Below are positions 11,041-38,574 of a stretch of DNA of 64,000 nt, one piece after another. Origin of the DNA: Antedon mediterranea (Eukaryota > Echinodermata > Crinoidea > Comatulida > Antedonidae); NCBI RefSeq assembly GCF_964355755.1, contig NC_092680.1, positions 18,577,001 through 18,641,000 on the forward strand. The letters are read 5' to 3'. Made by a program: the position numbers and the translations under genes. The stretch's first letter is position 1, and each line of letters begins with the position of its first letter. The notes under the pieces are model-generated. The model was not told where the DNA came from, searched no databases, and saw only the letters and a program-made list of their open reading frames with translations.

Positions 11041-11450
11041 TAATTAGGGACCCTAAGATACAGTACGGTGATTATGACTGTAATTAGGGACCCTAAGATA
11101 CAGTACGGTGATTATGACTGTAATTAGGGACCCTAAGATACAGTACGGTGATTATGACTGTAATTAGGGACCCTAAGATACAGTACGGTGATTATGACTG
11201 TAATTAGGGACCCTAAGATACAGTACGGTGATTATGACTGTAATTAGGGACCCTAAGATACAGTACGGTGATTATGACTGTAATTAGGGACCCTAAGATA
11301 CAGTACGGTGATTATGACTGTAATTAGGGACCCTAAGATACAGTACGGTGATTATGACTGTAATTAGGGACCCTAAGATACAGTACGGTGATTATGACTG
11401 TAATTAGGGACCCTAAGATACAGTACGGTGATTATGACTGTAATTAGGGA
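11041..11450. repeat. 40-bp minisatellite, ten perfect copies
   Basis: Ten consecutive 40-bp units start at 11041, 11081 and so on to 11401, each opening with TAATTAGGGACCCTAAGATA. A final 10-bp partial copy follows. I see no mismatch between units, which points to recent expansion or homogenisation. There are no unique spacers, so this is a head-to-tail satellite and not an alternating repeat-spacer array. Confidence 0.97.
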
Positions 11451-12423: not shown

Positions 12424-14463
12424 TTAAATTATAAGAATTCGTTCATTGCCGCTATCGGATATTAAAACTCTTCCATCCCTAAATACAGCAACATCCTCTG
12501 GTTCCCGTAGTGCAGATGAACTACTTTCAATGACACGCACACAGCTACCTTTAGTGTCAAACATTTGAACTCTGTTGTTACCGTAGTCTGCCACTAGTAT
12601 ATTACCCTTCCGATCCGCCACTATACCCCTGGGTCCACGGAGGTATCCCGGGTCATTGCCTTTACCGTAGCCAATCTTTCCGAGAAAAGATCCATTAACT
12701 GCGGAGAAGATCTTAATGTTGTTTGATAGTTTGTCAGTGACATACAAGTTATCTCTATGAATACATAGTCCTCTTGGTTTTCCTAAGCGAGTCGCGTCGC
12801 CAATACGTCGCAATAATACTCCTTCAATATTAAACACGTTTATGCAGTGATCATCAGGATCCACAATGTATATATTCCAATCAGTATCAACTGCTATGCC
12901 AATTAATGTGGTTCGAGCTTGCGCGGACTCAAGTTGTTTACAGGTGAATCCTAGAACATGTTCTCCAGTCCAATCAAAGATGTGTAACCTATAGTAACCG
13001 TCGACTACTATGACTTTGTTCTCAAAGTTTGTGGTCACGCCCAATGGGCATTTTAGTGGATATTTTCCACGATCGCTGCGTAAGGTTCGTATGTGAGTTC
13101 CAATGTCGTTGAAAATACGGACGCAGTTGTTCCCTTTATCAGCTACTACAATAGATCGGTCTTCTGTTATAGCGACACCGGACGGTCCTCCAATAAATAA
13201 TCGGTTATGACGAAAGTATTTTTGACCTAGGCATCTTGGAGTGGCAGAAAGACTGACAGTTGATTGCTCTTGCAGAAGAGTGTCGCTCTCTGCCAATGTG
13301 GTAGCACCAGATGGAGAATGAAACATGTTCGGATTGAACACTTGCAAATCACGTGGTGACTGACCAATAGAAATCTCATTAATGGTTGGCCTCGGTTCAT
13401 TCATCATTGTAGGTGAAATCAAGTCTTTGTTGTGGAGGTCACCACTGAGATCATTTGGTTCTGTAAGTTTGGCTGTCTTGCACAACGATTGATAGGAAAC
13501 CGGAGTGTCAGAATTTGACCTCATCAACTGATACTCAACATTACTTTGGTGAGATAGTGACCTTGCTTCAAGATTTTCCAACATCAACTCAGGTCCTAGA
13601 TATGCCGCGCCGCCAGCCGACAAATGAGGTGGTCTTACAGGTAATTCGGGGGCTATCTGCGCTGCACTGTTCATTTCCTCGTAAACCAAAGAGTTATCAA
13701 ATGAACCAACTTCATTTAAGCATTTTACCGCGTCTTCAAAATGTGTCTCAATGAACACCATTTTTCTGTCGTTTGACATGTATTGTCTATACAGAACATG
13801 TAGTTGATCTAAACACTCACTACATTTTTCAATAAGTTTTTTCATCTCGTGAACCTGATTTACAGAAGTCATACTCTTTTCTGCGTATTCAATGAAAGAT
13901 GTTGCGTTATTCACTTGTAGCTCTGAATTGCTATGTAATTGATCGGCGTCTAAAATGTCTATTTCCTGCAGTAAAATAGCTTCCCTCTCTTCTATGCGTT
14001 GTCGCAGACGGTCAAAACAACTTTTCACTTGATTACGCAAGCACGCGCATTTATCAGCAAACTCTTTCATGGAGTATGACGTTAGTTGACATTGACAACG
14101 AAGATCGGTTAATTTCCAACGAAGTTCGTCTGCCTGTTGGTCAAAAGTCTTCGGTACTAATTTAGGTGGTCTTGGTGGAGGCGTTGGTGGTTGAACGTTT
14201 CTACTGTATCTATCAAGCATCGAGATTGCTTGTATCATTGTCAAGTCATTTGGGAACCCAGTGCAGCCAGCACATGGAACATCGACCACCGCGCGGCAGG
14301 AAGAACAAACAACTCTTCCACTTATTTCTCCAGACATTCTTTGAACACACGACAAACAAAGGGTGTGTCCACATGGTAGTAATTTCGGCAGCCTCTCATT
14401 TTCGTTGTAGTCTTCGTAACAGACAGAACACTCGACAAGTCGGTTCAAACCTTTGGTGGCCAT
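12424..14463 (-). CDS. RING-coiled coil-NHL E3 ubiquitin ligase (TRIM32/nhl-1-like)
   Basis: Uninterrupted 679-codon reading frame. Start chosen at 14463 (MATKGLNRLVEC) because a consensus acceptor (TTCTATTTCAG) ends at 14488 on the minus strand, making upstream in-frame codons intronic; a 5' UTR exon must lie further right. Residues 12-56 form a C3HC4 RING (C12, C15, C31, H33, C36, C39, C53, C56). A helical, probably coiled-coil region follows at about 110-260. A low-complexity linker separates it from six NHL repeats at about 417-679, with repeated motifs such as VADKGNNCVRIF and VADYGNNRVQMF, a six-bladed propeller ending exactly at the C-terminus. No B-box is apparent between RING and coiled coil, unlike classical TRIM proteins. 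Role: ubiquitin ligase whose propeller binds substrate or RNA. Substrate unknown. Confidence 0.92.
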   Translation of the reverse strand: MATKGLNRLVECSVCYEDYNENERLPKLLPCGHTLCLSCVQRMSGEISGRVVCSSCRAVVDVPCAGCTGFPNDLTMIQAISMLDRYSRNVQPPTPPPRPPKLVPKTFDQQADELRWKLTDLRCQCQLTSYSMKEFADKCACLRNQVKSCFDRLRQRIEEREAILLQEIDILDADQLHSNSELQVNNATSFIEYAEKSMTSVNQVHEMKKLIEKCSECLDQLHVLYRQYMSNDRKMVFIETHFEDAVKCLNEVGSFDNSLVYEEMNSAAQIAPELPVRPPHLSAGGAAYLGPELMLENLEARSLSHQSNVEYQLMRSNSDTPVSYQSLCKTAKLTEPNDLSGDLHNKDLISPTMMNEPRPTINEISIGQSPRDLQVFNPNMFHSPSGATTLAESDTLLQEQSTVSLSATPRCLGQKYFRHNRLFIGGPSGVAITEDRSIVVADKGNNCVRIFNDIGTHIRTLRSDRGKYPLKCPLGVTTNFENKVIVVDGYYRLHIFDWTGEHVLGFTCKQLESAQARTTLIGIAVDTDWNIYIVDPDDHCINVFNIEGVLLRRIGDATRLGKPRGLCIHRDNLYVTDKLSNNIKIFSAVNGSFLGKIGYGKGNDPGYLRGPRGIVADRKGNILVADYGNNRVQMFDTKGSCVRVIESSSSALREPEDVAVFRDGRVLISDSGNERILII

Positions 14464-16739
14464 ATTGAAGCTCAGTGGGGTTATTACCTGAAATAGAATA
14501 GATGAATTCAAGAAAAACTACTGGTACTGTACGTATACAGAATTTATATTTTTATTCATTTAAGGTACCTGATATCTGGTACAACCGGGGGTACAACTGA
14601 TTATCGACAATCATTTAGGAACTTGTTTTGTGCATTAAATACTTTTAATACATGTTATCTCTGCCAGGTGCTATCTATTAGTAGTTAAACCATGCATTCT
14701 GACTGTGGATAGTCAGTTAGAATATATTTTATGACCGGGGGTATTCTATAAATATGAGCACGATCATCATAATCTGCCTATATTGTGCAGAACCGCATTT
14801 CAGTATTGTAGTCGCACATGAAGTTTAGACCTATGTTAGGTATCGAATACCTCCACCCACCTGTATACCGTTAAGGTTATTTCTGTTTTCGCAATATAGC
14901 CTAATATACAATAAGCGCATGCAGTACACAAAATATTAATATCGTTTTATTTGGATACTAAAACAAATACGCATTTGTGAACGTTTGTTGGGATGTGGAT
15001 CTTTTAGAAGAAACTAATTTCAAAATGTGAGTTGAATGAATGGGGTAACACAGAGGGCGCGTTTATATAACACGCTATTACACGCATATTCAACAAGTGT
15101 GTTGTATAACAACAAAAGAGATTCTGTGTAATGAGATTTTAATTGCAAAAAAAGGCTACTTGGCTGAATCCTAACATTTTGTGGATTCCCGGTTGCTGTT
15201 GGCGTGTTGGAAGTGTCCTCAGGGTATTGTTTTTACCTCTCGTTAAATATAAGTATGTGCTGTGAAAATGTTGACCAAATCTAGTAGATAATTGTGCTTT
15301 TTTTGCATATTTTAACTGATTTAGCACTTAATATTAACGCTAATTAATGTTGGCATAATTTGGCAAAATTTAGCATAGTTTTATCCTAATTCTAAAACAT
15401 TTTTTTTTAAATTTCAAAAGCAGATTTAAAAAATCAATAACTGAATAAACTAAATTTTAAACGAAATCATCCGTTTTATTAAAATCCTTTAATAGACTAA
15501 TATTAATTCATGCATGCGAGTATATATGTAACTTAGGATTATTATGAACTATGGTATAACACGGTATTACGATTTAATGTACATAACTGCAAGGTTTTTG
15601 TGGGGTTGACCTCGGCCCGTGCAATACGCTAAAATGAAAGACGTGTTCAAATTTAGGGTGTTGTATAAAACAGCCAGAGACAAATCAATACGTGTTCATG
15701 AATAACCATTATCGTTGTAGGGTGAACACTGTAGAATCATGTAAATATTTAGGCTCCTTAAACGTAATCACCAAACCCCCATACATACCATACGATCGAG
15801 AGAATATACATCAAAAATATTAACATACGTTTTACATTACTTATCTTCTTACCTTCTTTCCACAACATTTATAGTATCCTTACATGAAGCAATTGCATTG
15901 TATTATCAACTAAACTGTTTTAATAAGAATGAACAACTAACACTACTCTGATGTCAGACAAAAACAAACATTAGGTCTAAAGTTCACAACCGTTTACCTT
16001 TACCATGGAGTAAAGAATCTTTACTTTACTCCATGCCTTTACACGATTTAGGTGAACAATGATGAATGAATGATAATCAGCTAGCCGTTAAATCTGTCAT
16101 ATTTTGGAATTAAATTATTTTATGTAAATCAGTAAATTATATTATCATTTTGTATATTTTTAATTGAAATAAAATCAGTTAGACTTCCAACATATAATAC
16201 GACATTATCATAGATAAAATGATGCAATGAATCATTTTTAGGCACCACCAGTGTAGGCCTATTACCCTATACACTTCAGCCTAGTTTATTAACTATATTT
16301 TCTTACAAACATGGTATTATTTGTTAAATAAAAGTCACATAATGCTATATTTATTATGTATGTAGTTACAATTCTTGGAAATAACATACAAAACTATGTT
16401 GCTATGTTGTTAACTAATAATTAATGAGATGCATTATCTTGTTATAAGAAGTCTTTGTTCCCTGCAAAACCATTTACTCCATAGGACGAGTGGTTTAAAC
16501 AAAATTAATCTCTGATACAAATTTTAAACAGGTCTTTTGTTTTTAATAATTATAAATACCCTTTAATATGTAATCTCAAAAACATTTTGATTTATGCATA
16601 TTCATTCTGTGTTATTTTCTTTAAAGTTTAAAAATAAAATGTATCACCCCTTCTATTAAATGGAAGATTCTTGATTACGTATTTCTTCTCTCACATCATG
16701 TAACCTTTGACCTCTTGATTTGGGTAAAAAAAGAGGAAA
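14464..16739. other. Head-to-head intergenic region between RING-NHL and ASXL genes
   Basis: About 2.3 kb that should hold both promoters and at least one minus-strand 5' UTR exon of the RING-NHL gene. The acceptor at 14488 demands such an exon, but I could not place it. No coding sequence is supported. A palindromic micro-insertion lies at 16004-16034 (separate entry). Confidence 0.5.
15996..16042. mobile_element. Ultra-short palindromic insertion (hAT-like), 31 bp
   Basis: The insert at 16004-16034 starts CATGGAGTAAAGAAT and ends TTTACTCCAT. It is flanked by ACCTTTAC on the left and GCCTTTAC on the right, a 7-of-8 target duplication. The termini match those of the insertion at 42268. Confidence 0.55.
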
Positions 16740-16832: not shown

Positions 16833-19800
16833 ATGAAAGCAAGGAAGAGAGCATCAAAAGGTCCTACTTGGGCCGAAGCTGCTGAAAAGGTGCGTATAAC
16901 AATCGGAAATTACCCCGCCTTCGAATATGCCTTTTTTTGCCTTGGGAAGGCCTTGTTGATACAGTTTGTGTAAGGCTAGCTAGGCCTAGGCCCTCTAGGA
17001 CTAGGTGGGTGGGTGCGGATGTTTAGTCTAATGTTCTTAATTTTAGGACTCAGGCCTATGATACCTTATCCTATAGGCCTAGGCCTATATATTATTAAAT
17101 ACGTCAGTACTTTTTATTTCAACGTATAATAATTTTAATGTGGTTTTTGTCAATTAATTTTTTAAAATGTTAATGCGTTGTCAGTTGTGATTAACTGTGT
17201 TTTACTGTTTTTTTTGTGTGTGTTCGTTTATATTTATATACTGTAGGCCTATATAGGTTGAACCTAGCCCAGATCTGCTAGCCTTAGTAGAGTAGTAGGC
17301 TAGCAGCGACATGTACTGTACACAGTGTCCACCTTCTTGTCAGTAGAAGCTTGACTAATTCCTTAATAGTGTTGTGATTTTAGGTCGGTGCTGGAATGGC
17401 CTGATAATGAAAGCTACTAGGCTTACCTTAACAGTCCCGCTTGTCCTAAATCACACAAGTATCCATAAGCAGTAAATCCAAATATCTTGGTCAATTCCGG
17501 TTGTGTCCGTTTCTCCTTGGTTCCTGCTTCGAATAGACCAGCTCGGGCGGCGTCGAGGTCCCACGTTAACATTTGCATACCCCCTGTATGCAAATCAGGC
17601 TATCGGGGCGACGCCCTCGTTCGGTCGGCGGGGTGGTCTGTTTACCCAGCGGGCGCCGTTCACAACACTCCTCCCGTGTTTGAAAAGCGGGCACCCCGTC
17701 CTGGATCCACCTCGGGGGTAAACCGGGTGATTTTCGTACGTGAAAAAATACCCAATACCCGTAGCTATATAGACCGCTTCCAACGATCCCTTCAGGTAGT
17801 CACTAGCCGTGGGACATGCCTGTGGCACCGTCCTCCGCTTCCCTAGATACCTGAAAGATATAAATGAAAATAAATGTAAAACAGAACCATGTTCTTTTGA
17901 AACGGAAAACTTCTGGAAAACTGAAAACTTCTGGTTGTGGGTGAGCAAGGGGCTCAAAGGAGATCTCGACCGTTCTTCCATGTCAGATCAGTGACCTGCC
18001 TGGGGCTCCGGTCGAGCACCTGTCCCACGGCGACGGCGGTCGCCCACAGCAGATGAGGTGCTCCAACTGGGTATCCGGCAGGAGGATAATCCGGTCCGTT
18101 GGACCCCATCAGCAATCGCCGATCTTCATTGGTAGCGATGAAACGCAGGCCCTTGCGTTGATCGGCCGTAAAGCCCGTCACTCGACTGGTCACGCTAAAG
18201 TATGTCCTGGGGAAATGTCGAAGGTAGGCGGTGGCTACGGCTTCCGTGGAAGCGTAGTCTGCCAGAAGCAGACGCTGTTCCTTCGACACACGACTTAGAC
18301 GCAAGATGTCCAAGACGCGATAGTGGCACTCCTCCCCAGTGACATCGCCTTGAACTCCAGAGACTTCAAGACACAGGATGCGGTGGTGGCGGCCGTCCAA
18401 GCAACGACCCAACACCCTCTTTAGCAGCAGATCTTGTCTCGGCCAATCTATAGGCGGGGCCGAATGGTCCAATCCCACTCTCCCGATTACTCGAACATCT
18501 CGAGTTCGGGCTAAGGCCAGGAGCCTATCGAATTGGACCGTTGTCGGCGAGTAGCCAGGAGCCACTCCCAAGCCCACCGCACAGCCGTTCCTCGCCAGTC
18601 CACCAATCTCCCGCTCGGTGGGGTAAGTGGTTGGATCGCCAAACAGGGCAATCCCGCCTACCACTTCCACAGGCTGTGTTCCACTCCTCACCCGCACCGC
18701 TCGCTCCACGTCCCAGAGGTCCGCTCGTCTGGAAAGCTGCAGGTCCCTCTGCAACCGGTCCAGGTGAAAACAAGCATCGAACACCTTGGGTGCCGAACCA
18801 AGCGAAGCCGATGTACCCCGCACAATCGGTGGCGCCGCCACTGATCTACCATCCTTCGGTGCCGGGGCATCGCGCTTGGTCGGTCGCTCTCCATGTTCTC
18901 CCTCTGCCGCCCTTCTCTTTGTCGACTTTTTGGCGATCTGGTCCACTGCCGGCTCCTCCTCCTCAGCCCGACGACCACACTCCTTCACCAACTCCTCACC
19001 AAAAGAGGCAATGAGAGCGATCACACAGCGCCAGTGTATGAGAGCCGACGGGTGACTGATAACCGGAGCTATCGTGAGAGGCGGGGGCCTCTTTCCCCCA
19101 ATCACCCGTGTCAGCATAAGGATGGCACTACGAGTTTTCCTATCCGGAGGTAGGACATCAGTGCCATCCCCCATAAGGTGCTGGACGTTCAGGAGACATC
19201 TCAGGTCCTCTGGTGTTCTGCCTTTACCAAGGCCCTCCGTTGCCAAACTGGTGAGTGCCCGCCACTGCACTCGTGCCCTCCGCCAAGAACTCCGTTCCAA
19301 TGGCCGGAAACATGCCGGGGCATGCGTCTTCGTGACGTGGACCCGTATGTTGCTCACTGGACCACATCCCAGATGGCATTTTAGTTTCCGCTCGGCTGGG
19401 GTGCTCGCCACCGGGCAAGCCCCTCTCGTATCCCCAGCCGCTGTCTCTTCTTTCGGGGTCATCAGATGGCAGATTGGTTTCCCCTTGGCTGGGGTGCTCG
19501 CCGCCGGGCAAGCCCCTCCCGTATTCCCAGCCACCGTCAGTTCCTCCGGTACCCCCGGACTAGCCAAGAGCACATCCTCCTCCATCTCGGAAATCTCCGT
19601 ATCACTTCCGTCAGCAAACGGTAACTGATCCATATCTGAGGAAGAAGAGAAGGTAAACGTGAGTACTTAATTGTTAACTGAGGACTTGCAGTCCGCACAT
19701 CGATATAAGTCAATGTCCCAGGCCTCAGATAGTGCAATATTCACACATGCACCGTGGTACCACACCTCGCAATAGTCACATTGTATCATAAACGAGCCGG

Positions 19801-22800
19801 CCCAGGGCTGGCGACATAGACAATACAACGGTCCTGCATCCGGATCTGTAGGTGAAGAAAGAGGAGGTAAATTAAAATCAGCCAGCTTGTCATGATTTAA
19901 AACCACCGTCTTATTTCTCAGCTGCACCTGAAAAAAACAAGAACTAATAACCAGCCTATCCTGGTGGGGTCAACCCTGCATTTCAACCAGCTGATTTACA
20001 TGCAAATGAGCAAACTGGACAGGATATTCAAGCGTGAGACCCCTTTCACAACACACCTCCCCGTTCTAAAAGGGAAGCATTCCACCTTTCTCACACTAGC
20101 TTGAATACACCGAGGAAACTCCCTGAAATGTGGGTTCTGTACGTCTTCTTCTACATCATCATGGTAAGTGTGAAGCTCAGGAGGCATACTGATGTACAGA
20201 TATCAGCTCCTGCATCACTATACTTACCATCTGCAGCAACTTCCAAGATCAACCTGAGTTCAACAAATGTACATCACATTGCCACGAGCAAAAGTAATGC
20301 AACCATTTGGCAGGTTGATATTGATGTGAGTTAAGTTGAGGTTTCCAGTAGAAACGAGTCAACTCAACTGCTCCGTCGTCATAGGCACAATTCCAGTTTG
20401 ATTCCGTCAAGATTCTTGTAGACTACACTCAGAAAGCGCAGTCAGAAGTGACAGCATCCATTAAGTTTCACCTCCTGGATCCCACGGAATCGTCCCAGCT
20501 AGCTTAGGGTCTACTCTCTCAGCCCTGCTGTGTAGAACCCCAGGTCTAGTCGGGGTGAGTAGCCAAGAATGTAACCGTTGAGAGCTACGGGCTTGCTTTC
20601 TGATAGGAAAGGAAGATGTCACCGTAAACTCTGTACCTGAAAGACAAAGCATACTTACCTTGTGTTCAGGGGGTACTTCAGTTACCATTCTAACCTGGGG
20701 TTGGTCTGTCAATCCGGTAGTAACCTCCACTGTGGTCGACCCCACATCTTTCGCAGCCGGTTTACAACTAGCCCGATCAGATCCAGTTGTGACCGAAATC
20801 ACTGGAGTGTTACAGACTCCAATACTGGCCGATTGGATATCAGCAACAGAAAAAGCGGATACCACAGTTTGTCTTTCTTTCGGAACGGTAGGTAATCTCC
20901 GTCTTCGTCGAGGTAGTTCAGGCTTATCTACCAGATTGGTAGGTAGTTGCGGCCATCGTCTGTGTTGTTCTGGAGTTTGTGGACTCCATGTTGGTTCAGG
21001 CCACTCTACCGGAATGGTGGGTAGTTGCCGTCGTCTACGTGGTTCTCTGGTACCATCAGGTTTAGTTTTTCCTGGCCTCTCCCCTGGATTAAACACTGGG
21101 AAATCAGGCACTGGTACCTTAATCCTCTCTTCTAGGTCTTCACCAAGGGTGGCTAAACATGATTCAACCACTGTGAAGTCAAGAGCTGTGGTGTGTGCTG
21201 TATGTGTCCTTTCCTGACCCGAAATGCTAGCCGACCATGAGTCAACCACTGGGAAATCCAGATTAGCACGGGCAGACTTTGACACTGATTCTTGACTTTT
21301 CTTCTTTCTTGTCAATTCACTTGTTGGTGTGACAAGGTTAGGCATTTCACCAGTGGGTAAAATGCACCCTCGTTTTGTGGTCTCTAGTTGTTTCATGGTA
21401 ATACATGGGTCTGCTACAGGAAGCATGTCCGATGTTGGTGAAGAGTAAGATGCCAAAAGTTGGAGTTCATCGGATGTGCCAGGAAGTCTGTTTTTACCTT
21501 GCCGCCCTGCAGCCTTCATCATGGTAAGAGATTTCCCATTGGGCACGTCCTCTTCTCCAATTGATGACTCCGCTTTCGGCCTACTCCAGATTTCAGAAGC
21601 TTGATAATGGTTTTCGGCTTCATCCTCGTGTGAGGATATGTGATGATGGGTTGAGCTACAGAGAGTATAAGTCATAGACCTAGTACGGGGCATTAAATCA
21701 TTTCCGACTTTTCTCCCATGCTCTCTGTACAACCCTTTGCGGCGACAGTCAAACCTCCTATATTTTTCAAGAGCTTTGGTGATAGTAGCACAATGTTTCC
21801 GTGAAACATACTCACCAGCATCCTTGTCGTGACACCCAGTGCAGAACCATTCCACCTGTAGCTTTTGCACTCTAGATCCAGGTAGATCACTACAGGCTCT
21901 CTCGGTTACCGTCATGACTCTACGTCCCCATTTTTCTATAGTTTCGTGTCGTTCCTGTTTTAGAGACCGCTCACCGTCTCCGAAACGTACACTGAGGACA
22001 TCCATCATCTCTTTGAAGTCTAATGTTGGCTCCATCCTTAAAAGATTGGTTAAGAACTTCGCCGCAGGTCCCTCCATACACCAAAAAAGGGCATTTTTAC
22101 TATCCCCGGTGGTAAGGTTCTGCGCCTTTGCGAAAAATCTGAACCGTTTCTTAAAAGGATACCAGTCATCATCCCAGCCATTAAAAGTTAGAGACTTGGG
22201 AATGTCTTTTTGTCTCAATAGTTTTTGTGATCGTTGGGAATGCCTATGCGAGTGTCGTCTTCTAGATTGAACACTCGTAGAATATTTACCATAAGCCCTA
22301 TCCTGATCACTATCTTCGTCACTTGTACAACTCTCATCATTACTAGAGCTGGAGTCCATAAGACTAGAGCTACTAGAAGAGTCACTGAAACAATCCTCTG
22401 TCAGTAATCTACAAAGCTTAGACACAGATCTAGTTTTTGAGGTTTTACTACCTTTAGTGCAATGGTGACCCCGTACATTAAGACTAGAGTCTAAAGCTAA
22501 CAGTTCAGATATTGGTTGACATTCTGCTTTGGTTGCATACCTATAGTGAGTATTCCTACAACCTGAATCTGTCTTTTCTCTGTGGTCAGAACTAGGTTGG
22601 TTGGTACTGATGTGTCTCCATGAGAAACTACCACCAGGTAAATCACCGGAATAAGTTCCAAATGGAACTTGTGCTGCATGAAACAGCTGAGGAGTGCTAG
22701 TGTTCTGAACCCAACTACTCACTAATTGAAGATTTGGTGTGAAATCCCAGCGAGTCGTTTTGGATGACAAGCACTTGATTCCAGTTAAATATTCTAAGTC

Positions 22801-25800
22801 ACAGGCTCTAATATTTCCAAATTTGGACCTCCAATCAGTAATTTTCCTAGCTCTTTTTCCTAGTAGATGGACAAGCTCCGGCTCTGTCCAGAAATTTATT
22901 GCAACATGAGGCATCCTTTAAAACATACGATACACTTAAACGTATAAAAGTATTGCCAGAGGTCAAAGACTTTCATTAAAATGTATCTAAATGTATGTTT
23001 TGCCACTAGTAATTATCCGGTTTAAGATGAATACTGTGTATAAACTAGGAATGTAAAATGTCATAAAATACCAATGCCTGGAATATTAAAATGGGCATAA
23101 AACTATTAAAACATTTGTGATACATTCACCAATTGCACAGCATTCAAATGATGACGATACTTCAAATCCAGATCTTGGTAATGCTCAACGAACACTGATC
23201 ACCAGACCCCTCCCCTCCACAGAAAGGCAGTGATAATCAGCGTGTGAAGTTGAAGTCACAAATCACGTGAACAGTCTTCAAGCTTTCCAGAAGAAAACAG
23301 ACTGGCACGGAATGAAAGTTGTAGTAACACTTTACAATCTTCAGTATGGTAAAACTAGCTGCAGTGTGAGATAACAGATGTTATCAAGCAAAGAGTACGA
23401 TACAAATTAAAATACCGCCAGACGTAATAAAAATTACAGGCCCAACAATAGAATAAAATATCGTCAATGCAGTAACACACACACAATATTGCAAAATGGT
23501 TGTTGGAGATGCAAATATAATAAAATATTTCACCAGCAAACCTGCAATAACAACTAGATTATCCAAAAAGACGTCAATACAGTTTAACAACACTTACCAC
23601 TAAACCTTCCCCCGATGCAAAGAAAGGAGAGCGATAATGCCACTGTGAGGTTAACACAATAATACGCACAGCCAGTATAATTTCTCAAGATGAAAAACCT
23701 GACTGACGGACGAAAAAGATGTTATCAATAAAAAACAATCAAAGTTAAAATTAGTGGTGCCACTCAGTTCAACGGCCACGCCTAGTACCCTACCAGGTGA
23801 TACGGCCTAATAAACTGTCCACTAATCCTTCAACTACAGCAAAAAAGTACAACTCCCGGTACGCATCGACTAACCCCGTCGATACGCTAATCAGCAAGTA
23901 TCCAAATGCCACAACACTGCGTGATTAACTTTACCGGTATGTTGTAATCTTCAATAAAGATATCCACTTCAATAAACTAACAAATGCACCGTAAGTACAA
24001 TAAGTTAATAGTTTCAGCAGAGGACGAAATACCTCGCAATCAACCCGATCACGTTAAGAATGCCAGCTGGCAATCAAGGCACCCGCCTCCCCACCAAAAA
24101 AAAAGATTACCGAGCTTTTGCTCGCAGCGCCAATGTTGTGATTTTAGGTCGGTGCTGGAATGGCCTGATAATGAAAGCTACTAGGCTTACCTTAACAGTC
24201 CCGCTTGTCCTAAATCACACAAGTATCCATAAGCAGTAAATCCAAATATCTTGGTCAATTCCGGTTGTGTCCGTTTCTCCTTGGTTCCTGCTTCGAATAG
24301 ACCAGCTCGGGCGGCGTCGAGGTCCCACGTTAACATTTGCATACCCCCTGTATGCAAATCAGGCTATCGGGGCGACGCCCTCGTTCGGTCGGCGGGGTGG
24401 TCTGTTTACCCAGCGGGCGCCGTTCACAACAATAGGATTATTGCAAATAGCTTGATTTCATGAGGAACTTCATTGCACAATGCATAATGAAAAGGGTTTG
24501 GGAGCCACCGTCACGACGCGTATGTACTAAACAACAAATCATGTACGCGTCATGACGTTTGCTCTCAAACCCCTCCCACCATGCGTTGTGCCTGCTATTT
24601 GGGATAAACCTTATATATCAATATAATATAGGCCTATCATCAGTTCCATTTACATGACAAAGCTTGCACTTTACTCACATGCTCTACAGTACTGAAATTA
24701 TCTTTATTTAGGGCATTAGATTTGGGTCACAGGAATGCTAACCAGTGGCTGAACCTAAAATCTAGGATTGTGACCTAGCTAGGCCTATTGTGCAAAAGTA
24801 CAGAACCTCCCATTACATTGTATTGTAAATGAAAAATAATTGGGAAAATTGATTTAAATTGTATTCCACTACAGAACTTAAAATTTATTCTTTTTTAGGT
24901 TCTTGAAAAATTTGACAATCGACCAATGAGCTTCAAAGAAATTCTGATTGACATTCAGAAGAACAATTACAAGGACATCAGGTAAGTGGTATTGACAAAG
25001 TATGATTAACCACAAATTGACACCCGATTCTTGTGTTGGTATCGCGTCTAGCTGTGTCATCATGTGCGGATGACAACAGGCCCATTACCAGCGCATCTAA
25101 TGCACTTGTCACTATACGACCCCCGGGAGAGGTGCGTCATTTGTCCTATGTGCGTCATACCTTTTGAATACCATGACGCACCCCTGCGTCAAATAAGTGA
25201 CTTACCTTTGGATGACCATGACACACCCATTTTGAAGAACAAGGACACATTTTGACCATGTTATGGTGGGTGGCAAAGTGACATTGACACACCAGTGTTG
25301 ATGTGACGTACCATTTGATTTGATTTTAAATAAAATAATTTTTTTCATCGTACAAGACAATATTTTCTAGGATGAAAATTGAATGAAACTGAAAATTGAT
25401 AAAGTTTTAGTTACTAAAACTATACACTGACAGAAATAACAATAACTTTGAAACCCATCTTTTTTTTTAAATTTCACCATTAATGGATATTAATTATGTA
25501 ATTATGTTAAGCTCTGTCTACACTATCAAACTTTATTTGACAAAAAAATGTGATGTGCCCATATATTGACATGATGATGTCATATTACTACCATATTTGA
25601 GAATGTCACTACCATATTTAGGCACATCACACTTTTTTTGTCAAACTAATTTGATAGTGTAGGTATAGCTTTACACAAATTATGTTATACAAATTTTATA
25701 AAAATAATTATTAATATTGATAATAATAAATAAATATTCAGTAGTTAAACATGCCAGGCAAAACAATGTATAATACGATGTCAGTAATACAAGGAAGGCT

Positions 25801-31800: not shown

Positions 31801-34800
31801 TTTATCAAAAAAGAATCAAATAACGGTATTTAATATGGATCAAAACAATTGTATTATTGCTTTACTACTAATGTTTGCGTCTCGTTTTCTAAAGAATAGT
31901 AGTAGATAATACGCCTTTTTTACTAAACGGAAGACATCTTCGATCAATGAAAACACAAACAATGCCGTTCAACGAAGCGTAACTAACAGAAATAACATAG
32001 CGTTTTCAGCCTATTTTCGGAGGACAAGTTACTTAAAAATTCGTAACTCCTCAACGGACAGTCGTATGGACAAAATTTGTACTGTAAAATGTTCTTTAAA
32101 GATTAGCCTATATAACTGTGTGATTGAAAAAAATTAAAATTTTTTTTTTCACTTCTTAAGTCCATCGAAAAAAACACCACAGTTTATAAGCATAGGCGCC
32201 GCATGGTGTCCTGAAATCCCATGAAAACGCTATGTTATTTCTGTTGGTTACGCTTCGTTGCACGGCATTGTTTGTCATAGATCGAAGATGTCTTCGTTTC
32301 GTGAAAAAGGCGTATACTAAATTCACCAATTTAATTTCAATGAAGAATTTCCGATTCATCAGCAATAAGTTTCGTAAACTTAAAGCTATAGTTGACCCAG
32401 AACGTTCATTTTATGACCGCGAGTGTTTACACTATACGAAGTGCCGGCCCGAAGCCCGCAATTGCCGGCCCGAAGCCCGCAATTGCCGGCCCGAAGCCTA
32501 CTCTAGACTAGGCTCAAAATTGAGCCCGCTCGAGGCCGGCTCGGTTGTTCCCAGAGTGTTTACACTTGTGCACTTTTGGCTCGGAGCCGGCCTCGGGCTC
32601 GCTAAAAGCTGAAGTGTAAATGGGGTCTAATGTTGAAGACTAGATGTGAGACTAGGCCATTAAAGAAAGCAGTGCTCATATTGTGTTTACGGCGTAAAAT
32701 AGACAAACGCACCATAGGTTTGTTTTTAATCGTGGAGCATTCACCCAGCCAATTCCTGAGTGTGCTATAGAATCATTAAATAGAACATTTGCCATGCGGT
32801 AGACTTGATAATGAACTGTATGGATATGAAATTGATCAATCAGATAGTAAGAATAAACTTGGGTTATAATGATTATATTTAATTTTCTTTTCTCAAGGAT
32901 ATCATCTTCTGCAATGAGTAATGAGTTCTTTGCAAGGGCGTGCACAAGTTGGCGTGAAAGTCTATCAGAAGGAGACTTCATGCCAGAAGCTCAGTTGAAA
33001 ATTAAACAAGAATTAGAAAAGGAAAAGGTTAAACTTGATCCGTGGAAGGTACGGCTCTTGTTTTTGGTTTCACCTGAATGTATTTTTGTAGTGGAACTGT
33101 AGGTTGGTGTTAACTGATGAAAGTGAATTTCCATTAAAATTTACAAACATTTTTCCGCCTAGGCCTAGCTCTGAATTAAGTTTTCCGTAAAGCTCAAGTA
33201 GCGATCGCAATGTAGGCCAGGCTAGAGATATTACGTGACTGCAAGCAGATTGACGACACATTTTTTTTTTCTTTGCATCACTCAAATAGATAAAAACGAG
33301 GTTCCTGAATTCAGAATACTAAATTAAATAAAATACAGATAAAAATAAACATATTATACACATATTAGGCAATGAACATTAATTCGAAACCACCCGGTGA
33401 TATACCGAAATTTAATTAATTAATTTGAAACGATAAAGATGAGGAAATCTGTGAGAATGAGAAAAAGTCGCCCCAACCGAGACTCGAACTCAGACCGCCT
33501 GCTTGATATGCAGATGTCCTAACCATTAGACCACTGGGGCTTTCATGGTATTGTTCAAACTAGATTGGATAGCAACTCTTTAATATTCTCGGCGTGGTAT
33601 GGCGGAACAGCACTAGTCCTCAGTTGTACGCACGCGCACCAGAGATCAAATTGATACGCCCTCATCTTTCGGTATTTTTATTCACGGGTCGGGATCTCCG
33701 AAGAGATACTTTTATATATATAAACACATTAGGCAATGAACATTAATTCAAAACCACCCGGTGATATACTGAAATTTAATTAATTACATGTACACTAGCA
33801 AGAGTATGTACATGCGCTGTGAAGAGGGTTTGTTTATTTTCGTTAACAAAATTTAATGTAATTATAATTACAAACAAAGTAAATTGTTCATACATAGTTT
33901 TTGTGTAATTATAAATTATTTTTTTATTTTATGAATTATTTTTAGATTTAATTACATGCATATACAATTTTTTTTATTTAGGTAAAACATTTTGAGCCTG
34001 TTTGGGGTCAAAGTACCATACCGAAAAATCCAGATACAAACTCGTCTATTGAGCTTGTATCAACTTCACCAACCAAGACGTCACCGGTGAAAATAATAGA
34101 GAAACAGCAGTCAGCGCTTTCAGCTACTGTGAAGCCTGTAATTACCACTGTAGCAGCTATACGAAGTCCAGTTGTGACAAGATCAGTCACCGCAACTTAC
34201 AGACCTAGTCACGTTTCTGATGCAAAGTCAGAGCTGTCTGATAGTACGGCAGCGCATTGTGTAACCACATCAGATTGCAATACAAAAACAATACCAAGTG
34301 TTAGTGTGCCAGTTGTTACGACGAGCACAGCAACAACCAAAGCAGATTTAGACATTGTCAACGTTAAAAGTGAACTTAGTAATTCTCCATCGTCTTTACA
34401 AGTGTCAACATCGTCATCGTCAACAATTAATAGTTCTCATTTCTCGTGTAGTAATCTACTTTCCAGTATGGCAGCTGAAAGCCAGAGGAATAGACAGTCT
34501 GCTGGCGAGTCTAGTGTAACGTCTTGTAAATCTGTCTCGAAATTAGCTGAAATGCTTCAAAAACCATCGCAAATTATGTCCGCAGATAAAAATAATAAAC
34601 GTCCTTCCACGGAAGTAAATCCTGTATCACCGGAGAAACGGTTACGAGAAGATACACCACAAGTGAAACATCAACCGCGAATTATCCTAAAGTTTACCAA
34701 AGGAAAAACGACACCACATGTTCGTATGCAAACAGAAATAAAACCAGTGAAAACTACAATACAAGTAAAACGTCCGTTGCCTAGAGTGAAAGGACAAACA

Positions 34801-35592
34801 AAAACACTAGCCCAAATTAAAGCTCAAAATCAATCCAAAGCAAAGTTGCAAGCCCGCAGGCCAGGAGGCATAAACAAAATGAAAACGCCATATTACTTAA
34901 ACTCTATTGTTCCAACAAATGCAACTGCTGTCGTTTCGCAAGCTAACCTTCAAGGCTCGCCGCCAAATGTAACACAGAATTCGATAACTTTAACCACACC
35001 GTTACAATCTGTTTCCCAGTTTATTGTTCGGCCAGTGAGTGTCGTTCTTATGGGGAAACCCCAAGTACAATTGATATCAACACAAGCACAAAGTTTTTCG
35101 GAAAACGTAAATCCTTCGTCTGGCACGACATCAGGTAGTGTCATGACCCCGGGAAAGCAAGTGATACTGTTACAAACAAGTTCAGCGTCTGTACCTAATA
35201 CACAAACTGTTACTAATACTCCTCTATCACCTAATAACAATATTGAAAGCATCAGACCAGTTGAGAATAAACAAAGTACACCAACAAATACGCAATTATT
35301 GAAATCTCCAATTAGGACGAACCAAGACAGAACAATAAACGGTACGCCGTTATCACTTTGTGTCACGCAGCCGTCACAGACAGTTGTCTTAGAAAATCAC
35401 AATCAAAACACGCAACTTGGATATGTTACTGGAAACAAACCAACAGCGTCGAAATCGGAAAGTTTAAATGCAACAATAGCAAAATGTACATGTCGAGTGA
35501 AAGCAATGATTTTATGCCAAGGTTGTGGGGCTTTTTGTCACGATGATTGTATAGGACCAACAAAGCTATGTGTTACATGTCTTATACGATGA
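16833..35592 (+). CDS. ASXL: ASXL / Additional sex combs-like, PR-DUB cofactor (complete, 11 exons)
   Basis: Exons read as 16833-16889, 24899-24981, 28028-28136, 28540-28651, 28774-29016, 29305-29465, 30275-30305, 30720-30772, 31249-31358, 32898-33048 and 33982-35592. GT-AG borders and phases are all consistent, giving 906 residues. Domains: an N-terminal HARE-HTH/ASXN winged helix at about 11-83 ([22 protein letters not shown]); a DEUBAD/ASXH domain at about 266-370 ([38 protein letters not shown]); a long Ser/Thr/Pro-rich linker; and a C-terminal ASX-type PHD at 870-906 ([25 protein letters not shown]). ASXL proteins bind and activate the BAP1/Calypso deubiquitinase, which removes ubiquitin from H2AK119 in Polycomb regulation. 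At 906 residues it is shorter than vertebrate ASXL1-3 (about 1,500 or more). Intron 1 carries the antisense LTR element. A single ancestral-type ASXL copy is inferred. Confidence 0.95.
17370..17667 (-). repeat. 3' LTR of the Gag-PHD-TatD element
   Basis: 298 bp with TG..CA ends extended to the inverted 8-mers TGTTGTGA and TCACAACA. By eye it is identical to the copy at 24134-24431. The left flank is ATAG. Confidence 0.95.
17668..17676 (-). other. Polypurine tract
   Basis: The minus strand reads CGGGAGGAG immediately before the 3' LTR TG. This is the expected position and composition of the plus-strand primer of an LTR retroelement. Confidence 0.65.
17954..19633 (-). CDS. Zinc finger plus degenerate TatD-like nuclease-fold protein of the retroelement
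   Basis: 559 codons from ATG at 19633 (G at -3, G at +4). It lies in the same frame as the PHD exon, 11 codons beyond that exon's stop. Residues about 32-88 contain a tandem duplication ([13 protein letters not shown] / [13 protein letters not shown]), followed by a C86-X3-C90-X8-H99-X4-H104 zinc-finger pattern. Residues about 284-559 follow the TatD order: [58 protein letters not shown]. The TatD HxH becomes C288-x-H290, the Glu of GEIGLD becomes R385, the HCF-type His is absent and the Asp of LLETD becomes N512, so metal-dependent nuclease activity is unlikely. Function unknown; a structural or nucleic-acid-binding role is possible. Confidence 0.75.
   Translation of the reverse strand: MDQLPFADGSDTEISEMEEDVLLASPGVPEELTVAGNTGGACPAASTPAKGKPICHLMTPKEETAAGDTRGACPVASTPAERKLKCHLGCGPVSNIRVHVTKTHAPACFRPLERSSWRRARVQWRALTSLATEGLGKGRTPEDLRCLLNVQHLMGDGTDVLPPDRKTRSAILMLTRVIGGKRPPPLTIAPVISHPSALIHWRCVIALIASFGEELVKECGRRAEEEEPAVDQIAKKSTKRRAAEGEHGERPTKRDAPAPKDGRSVAAPPIVRGTSASLGSAPKVFDACFHLDRLQRDLQLSRRADLWDVERAVRVRSGTQPVEVVGGIALFGDPTTYPTEREIGGLARNGCAVGLGVAPGYSPTTVQFDRLLALARTRDVRVIGRVGLDHSAPPIDWPRQDLLLKRVLGRCLDGRHHRILCLEVSGVQGDVTGEECHYRVLDILRLSRVSKEQRLLLADYASTEAVATAYLRHFPRTYFSVTSRVTGFTADQRKGLRFIATNEDRRLLMGSNGPDYPPAGYPVGAPHLLWATAVAVGQVLDRSPRQVTDLTWKNGRDLL
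19667..19927 (-). CDS. PHD-finger exon, spliced in frame to Gag
   Basis: The exon begins after an acceptor (TTTTTTTCAG) at 19928, has no ATG of its own at the 5' end, and runs 86 codons to TAA at 19669-19667. It encodes a complete C4HC3 PHD (exon residues C36, C38, C50, C53, H58, C61, C77, C80). LYCLCRQPW and [13 protein letters not shown] closely parallel the BPTF PHD. Y35, W42 and W56 occupy three of the four positions of the BPTF aromatic cage that binds trimethylated H3K4; the fourth appears to be M47. Phase matches the gag donor at 20658, so the expected product is Gag(1-752)-PHD. H3K4me3 binding is inferred from the cage, not shown. Confidence 0.8.
   Translation of the reverse strand: MQLRNKTVVLNHDKLADFNLPPLSSPTDPDAGPLYCLCRQPWAGSFMIQCDYCEVWYHGACVNIALSEAWDIDLYRCADCKSSVNN
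19928..20658 (-). other. Retroelement intron between gag codon 752 and the PHD exon
   Basis: 731 bp with a GTAAGT donor and a polypyrimidine-CAG acceptor. It contains the alternative 65-codon gag tail and an extra octamer word (ATGCAAAT near 20000). Retention would yield Gag alone; removal would yield Gag-PHD. Confidence 0.6.
20461..22914 (-). CDS. Retrotransposon Gag (capsid) protein, with internal splice donor
   Basis: 817 codons from ATG at 22914. Residues about 242-395 match a Ty3/Gypsy Gag capsid: [33 protein letters not shown], then a helical stretch with [16 protein letters not shown] and [11 protein letters not shown] serine/acidic tract lies at about 172-205. The C-terminal third is Pro/Arg-rich with repeated [10 protein letters not shown]-type blocks that could bind nucleic acid; no CCHC knuckle is visible. 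A consensus donor (AAG|GTAAGTATG, GT at 20658-20657) cuts after codon 752. Splicing to the acceptor at 19928 keeps frame and swaps the last 65 residues for the PHD exon. A second acceptor-like site (TTTGTCTTTCAG) lies at 20637. There is no protease or polymerase downstream in this frame. Confidence 0.85.
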   Translation of the reverse strand: MPHVAINFWTEPELVHLLGKRARKITDWRSKFGNIRACDLEYLTGIKCLSSKTTRWDFTPNLQLVSSWVQNTSTPQLFHAAQVPFGTYSGDLPGGSFSWRHISTNQPSSDHREKTDSGCRNTHYRYATKAECQPISELLALDSSLNVRGHHCTKGSKTSKTRSVSKLCRLLTEDCFSDSSSSSSLMDSSSSNDESCTSDEDSDQDRAYGKYSTSVQSRRRHSHRHSQRSQKLLRQKDIPKSLTFNGWDDDWYPFKKRFRFFAKAQNLTTGDSKNALFWCMEGPAAKFLTNLLRMEPTLDFKEMMDVLSVRFGDGERSLKQERHETIEKWGRRVMTVTERACSDLPGSRVQKLQVEWFCTGCHDKDAGEYVSRKHCATITKALEKYRRFDCRRKGLYREHGRKVGNDLMPRTRSMTYTLCSSTHHHISSHEDEAENHYQASEIWSRPKAESSIGEEDVPNGKSLTMMKAAGRQGKNRLPGTSDELQLLASYSSPTSDMLPVADPCITMKQLETTKRGCILPTGEMPNLVTPTSELTRKKKSQESVSKSARANLDFPVVDSWSASISGQERTHTAHTTALDFTVVESCLATLGEDLEERIKVPVPDFPVFNPGERPGKTKPDGTREPRRRRQLPTIPVEWPEPTWSPQTPEQHRRWPQLPTNLVDKPELPRRRRRLPTVPKERQTVVSAFSVADIQSASIGVCNTPVISVTTGSDRASCKPAAKDVGSTTVEVTTGLTDQPQVRMVTEVPPEHKVSMLCLSGTEFTVTSSFPIRKQARSSQRLHSWLLTPTRPGVLHSRAERVDPKLAGTIPWDPGGET
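22915..24133 (-). other. Retroelement 5' leader
   Basis: About 1.2 kb between the primer-binding site and the gag ATG, read on the minus strand. It holds only short frames; one of 69 codons is hydrophobic but starts without ATG and has no recognisable relative. It presumably carries packaging and splicing signals. Two purine/pyrimidine-rich blocks near 23210 and 23610 resemble each other (CCTCCCCTCC.. and CCTTCCCCCG..). Confidence 0.4.
24115..24132 (-). other. Candidate tRNA primer-binding site
   Basis: Reading the minus strand, one base after the 5' LTR comes TGGCGCTGCGAG, which begins with the TGG complementary to a tRNA CCA end. The implied tRNA 3' terminus (ending GCGCCA) suggests a tRNA-Ser type. 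That assignment is tentative. Confidence 0.5.
24134..24431 (-). repeat. 5' LTR of the Gag-PHD-TatD element
   Basis: 298 bp, the promoter-bearing copy in the element's own orientation. It holds a palindromic octamer pair (24335-24359) and, near its downstream end, a consensus splice donor AAG|GTAAGC with GT at 24190-24189. The right flank repeats the ATAG target duplication. Confidence 0.95.
24335..24359. promoter_or_regulatory. Palindromic pair of POU octamer motifs in the LTR
   Basis: ATTTGCATAC and GTATGCAAAT form a perfect inverted repeat around a 5-bp spacer; each arm contains the octamer ATTTGCAT/ATGCAAAT. The same sequence is at 17571-17595 in the other LTR. Octamers are recognised by POU-homeodomain factors. 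The position upstream of the LTR splice donor suits a U3 enhancer. Regulation by POU factors is inferred. Confidence 0.5.
25509..25671. mobile_element. MITE, AGCTCTGTCTACACTATCAAAC family (copy 1)
   Basis: Terminal inverted repeats AGCTCTGTCTACACTATCAAAC and its complement enclose a mostly palindromic 160-bp body containing TTTGACAAAAAA, TGTGATGTGCCC and their complements. TTA flanks both ends, compatible with a PIF/Harbinger-type TWA duplication. It lies in ASXL intron 2. Related copies are at 28344, 38398, 54486, 56493 and 63399. Confidence 0.75.
26438..26523. repeat. Inverted repeat (hairpin) in ASXL intron
   Basis: GTATGGGAGCTTAAAATGACCACC is mirrored by GGGTGGTCATTTTAAGCTTCTATAC about 36 bp later. 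It is probably a short MITE. No clear target duplication. Confidence 0.55.
27207..27424. mobile_element. MITE with 6-bp target duplication
   Basis: Terminal repeats CAGGCCTTGTCTTTT and AAAAGACAAGGCCTG bound 27213-27418. ATTTCT is repeated exactly on both sides (27207-27212 and 27419-27424). The 206-bp interior has GTGTG/CACAC-rich imperfect repeats and no ORF of note. The family is not identified; the CAGG ends are hAT-like but the duplication is 6 rather than 8 bp. Confidence 0.75.
28344..28423. mobile_element. MITE, AGCTCTG family (copy 2, internally deleted)
   Basis: It keeps a short left end (AAGCTCTGTC), a shortened middle and the full right arm ending TTTGATAGTGTAGACAGAGCTT. It lies in the ASXL intron between the exons ending at 28136 and starting at 28540. 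Confidence 0.65.
31572..32630. mobile_element. Non-autonomous PIF/Harbinger-like foldback transposon
   Basis: Terminal repeats GACCCCATTTACACTTCA (from 31575) and TGAAGTGTAAATGGGGTC (to 32627) are flanked by TAA on both sides, a 3-bp TWA-type duplication. Subterminal arms contain several GTGTTTACACTT and GCCGGC blocks. The inner parts are also inverted copies (around 31930-32010 versus 32225-32300), so most of the 1,053 bp can fold back on itself. A triplicated CCGGCCCGAAGCC motif lies at 32443-32500. No transposase is present. It occupies the ASXL intron before the exon at 32898. Confidence 0.75.
33371..33785 (-). repeat. Composite repeat: two ~53-bp direct repeats flanking a tRNA-like unit
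   Basis: Near-identical 53-bp segments (beginning CAATGAACATTAATTC and ending TTTAATTAATTA) occur at 33372-33424 and about 33734-33785, bracketing the tRNA-like gene and unique sequence. This could be a tandem-duplicated SINE body or a solo-flanked insertion. It lies in the last ASXL intron. Confidence 0.6.
33470..33540 (-). tRNA. tRNA-like gene or SINE head with anticodon ATC
   Basis: The minus-strand 71-mer folds as a canonical cloverleaf: a 7-bp acceptor (GCCCCAG/TTGGGGC), D arm (GTCT..GGAC), 5-bp anticodon stem (TCTGC/GCAGG), 4-base variable loop and T arm (CTGAG-TTCGAGT-CTCGG). The anticodon loop ATATCAA gives anticodon ATC, nominally Asp for GAU, which is unusual because eukaryotes decode Asp with GTC. 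The A box TGGTCTAATGG and B box GTTCGAGTC match consensus, and TTTTT follows three bases after the acceptor. Pol III transcription is plausible. The repeat context favours a SINE-derived tRNA-like unit over a decoding tRNA. Confidence 0.6.
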
Positions 35593-38397: not shown

Positions 38398-38535
38398 AAG
38401 CTCTGTGTACACTGCTATCAAATTTTATGTGACAAAAAATGTGATGTTCCCATAATAATGTATGGACATAATGATGTCATCACTACCATATTTGGGAATA
38501 TCACTGCCATATTTGGGGCACATCATAATTTTTTA
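38398..38535. mobile_element. MITE, AGCTCTG family (copy 3, right end missing)
   Basis: The left terminus AAGCTCTGTGTACACTGC and the TGTGATGTTCCC..GGGGCACATCA body are present. The expected right arm is replaced by a T-rich tract that leads into TTTCTTTTCAG at 38542-38552, just before the KCTD-like start codon. Confidence 0.65.
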
Positions 38536-38574
38536 TTATTATTTCTTTTCAGTTACGAAAGGTGTATATTTACA

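What the first reader, a model, noticed from the sequence alone, without database searches (positions are those of the whole stretch)
17370..24431. Pol-less LTR retroelement carrying Gag, a PHD finger and a TatD-like protein
The sequence shows matching 298-bp LTRs, a 4-bp TSD, a purine tract, a candidate primer site and three long open frames, but no protease, RT, RNase H or integrase. Known non-autonomous LTR elements are usually non-coding or gag-only. One that keeps intact frames for a chromatin-reader finger and a TatD-fold protein while lacking pol suggests selection on those modules. I do not know of a described family with this composition, and cannot search. It may be a cooperative parasite that borrows pol from a full-length Gypsy relative.
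Basis: partly seen in the sequence, partly recalled or inferred. Interest (0 to 1): 0.88.

Follow-up and report, generated by a model that had tools for sequence, protein, structure and literature searches.

The report
Pol-less retrotransposon with dead TatD protein
This is a recently inserted jumping element in an animal genome that has lost its own copying enzymes, probably borrows them from a complete sister element in the same genome, and still carries a DNA-cutting-enzyme fold that lost its active site yet was afterwards kept nearly unchanged by selection.

Summary
In detail: identical 298-bp LTRs, 4-bp TSD, primer site, purine tract, and minus-strand frames for Gag (817 aa), a PHD finger and a TatD-like ORF3 (559 aa from its ATG). 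The element has family. Of 7 such copies read, 6 have matching 4-bp TSDs. Eight related 7.8-9.8 kb elements share its LTR, leader and 3' end; 4 of the 8 have open Gag and Pol (PR-RT-RH-IN) and are the likely Pol source. One correction: the PHD is the tail of Pol (integrase end plus a PHF8-like finger), not a separate module. TatD is the third ORF of a Ty3/gypsy clade. A young element in the same genome carries Gag-Pol(PHD)-TatD with canonical active-site residues, and a crinoid has relatives. In the window's lineage six of seven of those positions are changed. Yet the fold is predicted intact, and after inactivation the domain changed at dN/dS about 0.06: apparently a selected pseudoenzyme, although the evidence inside the Pol-less family alone is weak. 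The Pol-bearing partner has deleted TatD; the Pol-less element keeps it. Gag-bearing Pol-less elements are known (TR-GAG), so this is a new variant. I found no description of the TatD ORF or the Pol-PHD tail in the open-access library searched.

The parts
24134..24431 (-). 5' LTR (298 bp, TG...CA)
   Evidence: 100% identical to the other LTR; 40 LTR matches in the genome, a lower bound
24432..24435 (.). target site duplication ATAG (partner at 17366-17369)
24119..24132 (-). primer binding site TGGCGCTGCGAGCA (tRNA-Ser-like by recall; the tRNA search did not complete)
   Evidence: same 24 nt after the 5' LTR in 7 of 7 copies of the family, 7 of 8 partner copies and 2 of 2 type C copies tested; first 18 nt also in L048
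22915..24133 (-). leader; 784 bp of it 95-96% identical to the Pol-bearing partner in the four copies compared; 5' splice-like GTG|GTAAGT at 23592-23597
20461..22914 (-). Gag, 817 aa from ATG; N-terminus related to the helix-hairpin-helix region of the partner Gag, capsid domain; no CCHC knuckle seen
20653..20658 (-). 5' splice-like site AAG|GTAAGT inside Gag, phase 0
   Evidence: exact string in 5 of 7 copies; phase by arithmetic; use in splicing is inferred
19928..19936 (-). 3' splice-like site TTTTTTCAG, phase 0; could join Gag to PHD in frame
   Evidence: exact string in 5 of 7 copies; phase; inferred
19667..19969 (-). Pol remnant: end of integrase C-terminus plus PHF8/KDM7-like PHD finger (core 19670-19834)
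   Evidence: 83% identical to L041 Pol 1313-1419; Pfam PHD; best PDB sequence hits PHF8, PHF2
17954..19666 (-). ORF3: C2H2-like motif (by eye) plus TatD-fold domain (first ATG 19633), active-site residues lost
   Evidence: Pfam PF01026; AlphaFold2 pLDDT 84, Foldseek to TatD DNases; motif table
19636..19661 (-). pyrimidine tract and 3' splice-like site two bases before the ORF3 ATG
   Evidence: same place in 7 of 7 family copies and in type C L043, L045, L053; use inferred
17668..17678 (-). polypurine tract CACGGGAGGAG
17370..17667 (-). 3' LTR

Best explanation
A young, non-autonomous member (type A) of a Ty3/gypsy clade whose complete members encode Gag, a Pol ending in integrase plus PHD finger, and a TatD third ORF. 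Type A kept LTR, primer site and leader, a divergent Gag of its own, the Pol tail with the PHD, and ORF3. It lost protease, RT, RNase H and integrase. Shown: copies inserted separately (near-identical LTR pairs, matching TSDs), and elements with open Pol and the same cis signals coexist. Inferred: type A RNA is packaged with Pol of the partner (type B), reverse-transcribed and integrated by it. ORF3 is most likely made from a spliced subgenomic RNA, as env is. It probably no longer cuts DNA but serves as a selected non-catalytic (nucleic-acid- or protein-binding) factor. The PHD, if made, would be a histone-tail (H3K4me3-type) reader, perhaps fused to Gag by splicing.
For: TSDs match in 6 of 7 type A copies; LTR pairs differ at 0/298, 0/298, 1/298, 0/148, 2/298, 9/222 and 1/298 sites. 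Type B: 8 copies read, 4 with both Gag and Pol open; LTRs 95.6-96.6% identical to the window's in 7 of 8 (L044 88%), leader 95-96% in the four compared. At E 0.001 no Pol homology beyond the tail in 7 of 7 type A copies. PHD = Pol C-terminus. L048 = gag-pol(PHD)-TatD with open frames, LTRs 306/307 identical, TSD GTAC. Changed active-site positions shared by types A and C, canonical in L048-L050. TatD domain between A and C majorities: 26 synonymous: 4 nonsynonymous, dN/dS 0.057 (0.057-0.073 by transition weight), versus 73.8: 130.2 private to single C copies, Fisher 1.6e-7. Dead clade 100/100 on a stem of 0.6, next to a canonical crinoid protein at 93/94.
Against: No expression, splicing, particle or transposition data. 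Three of 12 Gag-A loci were not read and the genome-wide Pol search did not complete, so a Pol-bearing element with this Gag is not excluded. Within type A, leaving out the recombinant-looking L047, ORF3 has 20.5 S: 23.5 N (one-sided p 0.005-0.032) and its TatD domain 7 S: 8 N: weak. Gag-A dN/dS is 0.61; p 0.0017 without transition weighting, about 0.05 under a harsher assumed null. Type A PHD 3.8 S: 15.2 N, no constraint seen; L035 has lost a zinc cysteine. For comparison, type B Gag is 0.29 and Pol 0.26. The 93/94 support is below the tool's 95 mark, and 5 of 9 inner branches are open.
Confidence: 0.82

Rival explanations
1. Type A is a passively copied derivative; its frames are relics, and ORF3 conservation dates only from the time when it sat in a Pol-bearing (type C) element.
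For: Differences inside type A are few, and in the TatD domain near neutral once L047 is left out; PHD unconstrained; 3 of 7 copies (L031, L034, L035) carry internal deletions.
Against: Gag of type A is not the type B/C Gag with a deletion but a 30%-identical paralogue, open over its full length in 3 of 7 copies. Older diverged Gag-A fragments at two loci read have no Pol nearby, so the Pol-less form has lasted. Gag-A and ORF3 within type A depart from neutrality, though only modestly.
Confidence: 0.25
2. Complementary two-component system: type B gives Pol, type A gives the TatD-fold protein in trans, each needing the other.
For: Type B copies keep only about the first 21 codons of ORF3 (8 of 8) while type A kept ORF3 and lost Pol; the type C copies read, with both, are decayed; A and B are both young.
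Against: Nothing shows that type B needs ORF3; it may be dispensable. L044, a TatD-less Pol-bearing copy with an 88% LTR, also has a near-identical LTR pair (1/299), though no matching TSD.
Confidence: 0.2
3. ORF3 is still a nuclease with rebuilt chemistry.
For: One His of the HxH pair and the predicted fold are kept.
Against: Six of the seven positions compared are non-canonical wherever they could be read in 7 type A and 6 type C loci (several loci are incomplete).
Confidence: 0.05

Closest known systems
TR-GAG elements (plants; PMC8704663, passages seen)
   Same: Non-autonomous LTR elements with an intact Gag, no Pol, and a related autonomous element; one was seen there to transpose
   Different: Here in an animal Ty3/gypsy clade, with a divergent Gag, a Pol-tail PHD and a TatD-fold third ORF
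Bdelloid rotifer LTR elements with enzymatic ORF3 (DEDDy exonuclease, GDSL esterase; PMC5408684, sections 3.3 and 4 read)
   Same: A nuclease-type third ORF in gypsy-like elements; those authors mention inactive DEDD relatives that keep RNA binding
   Different: Different fold (TatD TIM barrel); active site lost yet strong constraint here, whereas that paper reports no significant departure from neutrality. TatD does not occur in its text
Ginger1 transposases with C-terminal Ulp1/OTU, one with PHD (PMC2836005, passages seen)
   Same: Gypsy-type integrase core with a PHD downstream in the same protein
   Different: Ginger1 are DNA transposons; here the PHD ends the Pol of LTR elements
PHD fingers in CR1/L2 LINE ORF1 (PMC4120745, passages seen)
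   Same: Retroelement PHD suggested to aid targeting
   Different: LINEs, mostly ORF1; not integrase-linked
TATDN/TatD DNases
   Same: Fold; canonical motifs in L048, L049 and L050
   Different: Window lineage lacks those residues and has an N-terminal C2H2-like region

Membership tests
Ty3/gypsy (Metaviridae) LTR retrotransposon | LTRs TG..CA with 4-6 bp TSD | tested here: met
Ty3/gypsy (Metaviridae) LTR retrotransposon | Pol order PR-RT-RH-IN | tested here: not met
   absent in the window copy, present in partner L041 and in L048; the window is a non-autonomous relative
TR-GAG-like non-autonomous element | two LTRs, intact Gag frame, no Pol core | tested here: met
TR-GAG-like non-autonomous element | single ORF (Gag only) | tested here: not met
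   PHD remnant and ORF3 present; hence a variant
TR-GAG-like non-autonomous element | mobilised by an autonomous relative | tested here: inconclusive
   candidate partner found and copies inserted separately; transfer in trans not observed
TatD DNase (PF01026) | TatD TIM-barrel homology | tested here: met
   E 2.1e-8; Foldseek prob 1.00 to TatD structures, model made with an alignment of relatives
TatD DNase (PF01026) | active-site residues HxH, H, E, H, H, D (set named from recall; partly aligned to YcfH) | tested here: not met
   six of seven changed in the window; present in L048, L049 and L050
TatD DNase (PF01026) | nuclease activity | not testable with these tools
   needs an assay
H3K4me3-reader PHD (KDM7/PHF8 type) | best match to known readers, zinc-ligand pattern | tested here: met
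   PHF8 3.9e-16, PHF2 2.8e-15, then KDM7-type and BPTF chains; eight Cys/His read by eye in the window copy
H3K4me3-reader PHD (KDM7/PHF8 type) | binding of methylated H3K4 | not testable with these tools
   needs an assay

The most novel reading that the evidence does not exclude
A retroelement pair that has divided one ancestral genome: type B keeps Gag-Pol-PHD and has deleted ORF3, type A keeps ORF3 with its own Gag and has deleted Pol. ORF3 is a nuclease turned into a selected pseudoenzyme that works in trans for both, so the two are mutually dependent, as in a multipartite virus.
Probability: 0.17. Interest if true: 0.88.

Novelty: new variant of a known kind. Interest (0 to 1): 0.63.

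Why it matters
It adds a TatD-fold protein to the captured third ORFs of LTR elements. It supplies a natural integrase-PHD fusion, of the kind made artificially for retargeting (ING2 PHD fused to the integrase-binding domain of LEDGF; PMC8149907, passage seen). And it gives a case in which a retroelement enzyme lost its active site and then came under tight constraint. The A/B/C set makes it testable whether a Pol-less element gives anything back to its helper.

Tried and rejected
Considered and rejected: assembly artefact (copies elsewhere with their own TSDs); PHD as separately captured cargo (it is the Pol tail); hidden RT/IN in a type A copy. Protein database searches with the window's TatD region and Gag gave nothing at E 0.001; the L048 ORF3 found two Anneissia japonica proteins and one unnamed TatD protein. 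A scan of viral contigs confirmed no relative (31 pattern matches, 0 confirmed). The primer-tRNA search and the genome-wide Pol search did not complete.

Literature. TatD with retrotransposon and LTR: 4 papers, TatD passages seen in two, the other two by listing only. TatD, Gypsy, transposable element: 1, listing only. TatD, integrase, reverse transcriptase: 13, listing only apart from one also seen. Retrotransposon, TatD, PHD finger: 0. PHD with integrase: 2 papers, 8, 6; passages seen in PMC2836005, PMC4120745, PMC4255032, PMC8149907, PMC2991247, PMC5408684, PMC10799480 and PMC7602945, the rest by listing only. One search found 106 papers for a wider LTR/PHD query, 20 listed; PMC3286476, PMC6238403 and PMC8905726 were searched for PHD and TatD without anything like this. 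Subscription journals and Repbase were not searchable.
Full report
What is there. The element at 17370-24431 is real. Its two LTRs are 298 bp and identical, it is flanked by ATAG on both sides, and its genes read on the minus strand. Gag runs 20461-22914 from its ATG (817 residues), a 100-residue PHD ORF 19667-19969, and ORF3 17954-19666 (570 residues stop to stop); its first ATG (19633, 559 residues) lies two bases after a strong 3' splice-like site. Pfam calls PHD and TatD_DNase but nothing in Gag. Gag is identified by 30% identity (8e-51) to the Gag of a sister element that has Retrotrans_gag, HHH_3 and CCHC matches. The window Gag shows no CCHC knuckle. A predicted capsid model (pLDDT 80, pTM 0.59) has the PNMA2 and dArc capsids as best PDB matches, at low TM-scores of about 0.35, and only PNMA2 is under E 0.001.

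Family in the genome. The window's genome (354 Mb, 18 contigs) gave 40 LTR matches, a lower bound (40 of 57 candidates scored). I read 17 elements counting the window's (L046 and L047 are two halves of one). Type A, like the window: window, L031-L035 and L046/47, 7 copies. Type B: L036-L042 and L044, 8 copies with Gag and Pol. Type C: L043 and L045, 2 copies. The partial loci L053-L056 carry ORF3 of the type C kind. L043, L045 and L053 also hold broken Gag and Pol. Of 8 type B copies, 4 (L038-L041) have both Gag and Pol open. Pol of L041 has protease, RT, RNase H, H2C2, rve and a C-terminal PHD.

Movement. 4-bp TSDs match in 6 of 7 type A copies; the seventh, L033, has a truncated 5' LTR. They match in 5 of 8 type B copies (not L036, L037, L044), and of type C in L045 but not L043. 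LTR pairs of type A differ at 0/298, 0/298, 1/298, 0/148, 2/298, 9/222 and 1/298 sites; type B at 0 to 2; L043 and L045 at 7/286 and 9/288. So A and B are mostly young, and the two C copies are older. All 7 type A copies, 7 of 8 type B and both type C share the same 24 bases after the 5' LTR. The distant element L048 shares the first 18.

The PHD is a piece of Pol. It is 83% identical (89/107) to residues 1313-1419 of the type B Pol, with gaps of 12 and 1 residues, and at E 0.001 that tail is the only Pol homology in 7 of 7 type A copies. Among solved structures the finger is closest to PHF8 and PHF2, with BPTF further down. That these bind H3K4me3 is general knowledge; binding by this finger is inferred. 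In type B the integrase therefore ends in a chromatin-reader-like finger.

TatD is a third ORF of a wider clade. tblastn with ORF3 gives 73 matches in the genome (77 of 87 candidates scored), including diverged ones at 35-42% identity. L048 has Gag 692, Pol 1455 (PHD at its end) and ORF3 563 residues, all open, LTRs 306 of 307 identical and TSD GTAC. L049 has the Pol tail, and L050 broken Pol pieces, next to TatD. Outside this genome two Anneissia japonica (crinoid) proteins match, at 37% and 51% identity over 95% and 49% of the query, plus one unnamed protein weakly.

The window's TatD has lost its active site but is conserved. At the motif columns L048, L049 and L050 read DAHFH, G(V/L)HP, GE, LH, LH and E(S/T)D, the canonical set as I know it. 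Type A and C loci read DACFH, GVAP, GR, CLE, LAD and GSN apart from private changes and missing stretches; none reads canonical at the six changed positions. Two further diverged loci, L057 and L058, are canonical at the E, H and H columns (L058 has a stop beside one of them); L057 is also canonical at D, while L058 is not, and L057 differs at the GxHP column. L059, 61% identical over the part aligned, is already non-canonical. The fold is predicted intact (pLDDT 84, pTM 0.86, five-sequence alignment that includes canonical relatives), and TatD DNases are the best PDB matches. The tree puts the A/C clade at 100/100 on a stem of 0.6, next to a canonical Anneissia protein at 93/94, just under the tool's 95 mark; 5 of 9 inner branches are open and L048, L050 and P0001 are long branches. 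Between the majority codons of types A and C, i.e. after inactivation, the TatD domain has 26 synonymous and 4 nonsynonymous changes (dN/dS 0.057, 266 codons), the N-terminal half 30.5 and 25.5 (0.28), the whole ORF 56.5 and 29.5 (0.185, 502 codons). Changes private to single C copies, mostly post-insertion decay, are 73.8 and 130.2 in the domain (dN/dS 0.66; Fisher 1.6e-7), and the domain value stays at 0.057-0.073 with transition weights 1, 2 and 4. Codons were used where at least 3 copies per group had letters and the majority reached 75% (A) and 60% (C).

Against over-reading. Within type A alone the evidence is weaker. The ORF3 dN/dS of 0.31 is driven by L047, in which 25 of 46 variant codons match type C, so it looks recombinant. 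Without L047 ORF3 has 20.5 S: 23.5 N (one-sided p 0.005-0.032 by transition weight) and the domain 7 S: 8 N. Gag-A has 65.25 S: 128.75 N, dN/dS 0.61, p 0.0017, rising to about 0.05 if the neutral nonsynonymous share is set at 0.72, an assumed value. The type A PHD has 3.8 S: 15.2 N, no constraint seen; its 55-residue core is identical in 4 of the 6 copies with the type A form and has lost one zinc cysteine in L035. Type B Gag and Pol, as yardstick, give 0.29 and 0.26. So selection on the dead TatD is shown for the A/C lineage, not firmly for the Pol-less family by itself.

History. All 8 type B copies keep only about the first 21 codons of ORF3 after the Pol stop, with the ATG gone in the two shown. 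So type B lost ORF3, and type A lost Pol. The window's leader is nearer to the type B copies compared (95-96%) than to type C (88-90%), but L031, also type A, is only 94% identical there. Its LTR is 95.6-96.6% to seven type B copies and 85-92% to L043 and L045. From PHD to 3' end it is nearest to L043 overall, though type B reaches 96% in the PHD stretch. This fits recombination between co-packaged RNAs, but age differences could mimic it. Gag-A is found at 12 loci at over 60% identity (57 matches, 55 of 75 candidates scored); in the 9 that I read no Pol core was found, and 3 were not read.

Expression model (inferred). The leader has GTG|GTAAGT in the two type A and two type B copies scanned, and the ORF3 acceptor is present in 7 of 7 type A and three type C loci, as for an env-like spliced RNA. 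AAG|GTAAGT in Gag and TTTTTTCAG before the PHD are both phase 0, occur as exact strings in 5 of 7 type A copies, and would give a Gag-PHD fusion.

Known or new. Gag-bearing, Pol-less LTR elements are known as TR-GAG (PMC8704663, passages), enzyme-like ORF3s are known from rotifers (PMC5408684, sections 3.3 and 4 read), and a PHD behind a gypsy-type integrase core is known in Ginger1 (PMC2836005, passages). I found no paper describing a TatD ORF in a retroelement, nor an LTR-element Pol ending in a PHD, in searches; many of the listed papers were seen by title only, and the library lacks most subscription journals. Hence: a new variant of a known kind.

Noticed in passing
window 46763-53662: Two neighbouring satellite-like arrays: units of about 470-480 bp (5.0 and 4.3 copies), then nested 89/195/282 bp units with inverted similarity to themselves.
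   Followed up: no
window 59192-60678: A 19-bp array (27 copies) followed by an 83-bp array (11.7 copies); the first lies in a 200-residue open frame.
   Followed up: no
window 11041-11450: Perfect 40-bp tandem repeat, 10.2 copies at 100%.
   Followed up: no
window 12424-14517, 33982-35592, 38245-39147, 43168-43905: Host-like coding stretches: a RING/NHL frame, an Asx-type PHD (PHD_3) frame, and two BTB_2 frames.
   Followed up: partly
window 44322-45053: Piece of a LINE-like element with zf-RVT.
   Followed up: no
window 33469-33540: tRNA gene, called Asp with anticodon atc.
   Followed up: no
L046/L047: Type A copy of 14.5 kb with two inserts (about 3.2 and 4.6 kb) and a Pol tail of the undeleted B/C form; looks recombinant.
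   Followed up: partly
L048 7040-7200: ORF3 of L048 opens right after a 3' splice-like site but has no early ATG, so how it is started is unclear.
   Followed up: partly
Anneissia japonica LOC117116965 (P0001): Annotated crinoid protein that joins an apparently unrelated N-terminus to this kind of ORF3; possibly mis-annotated or a host-adopted copy.
   Followed up: no
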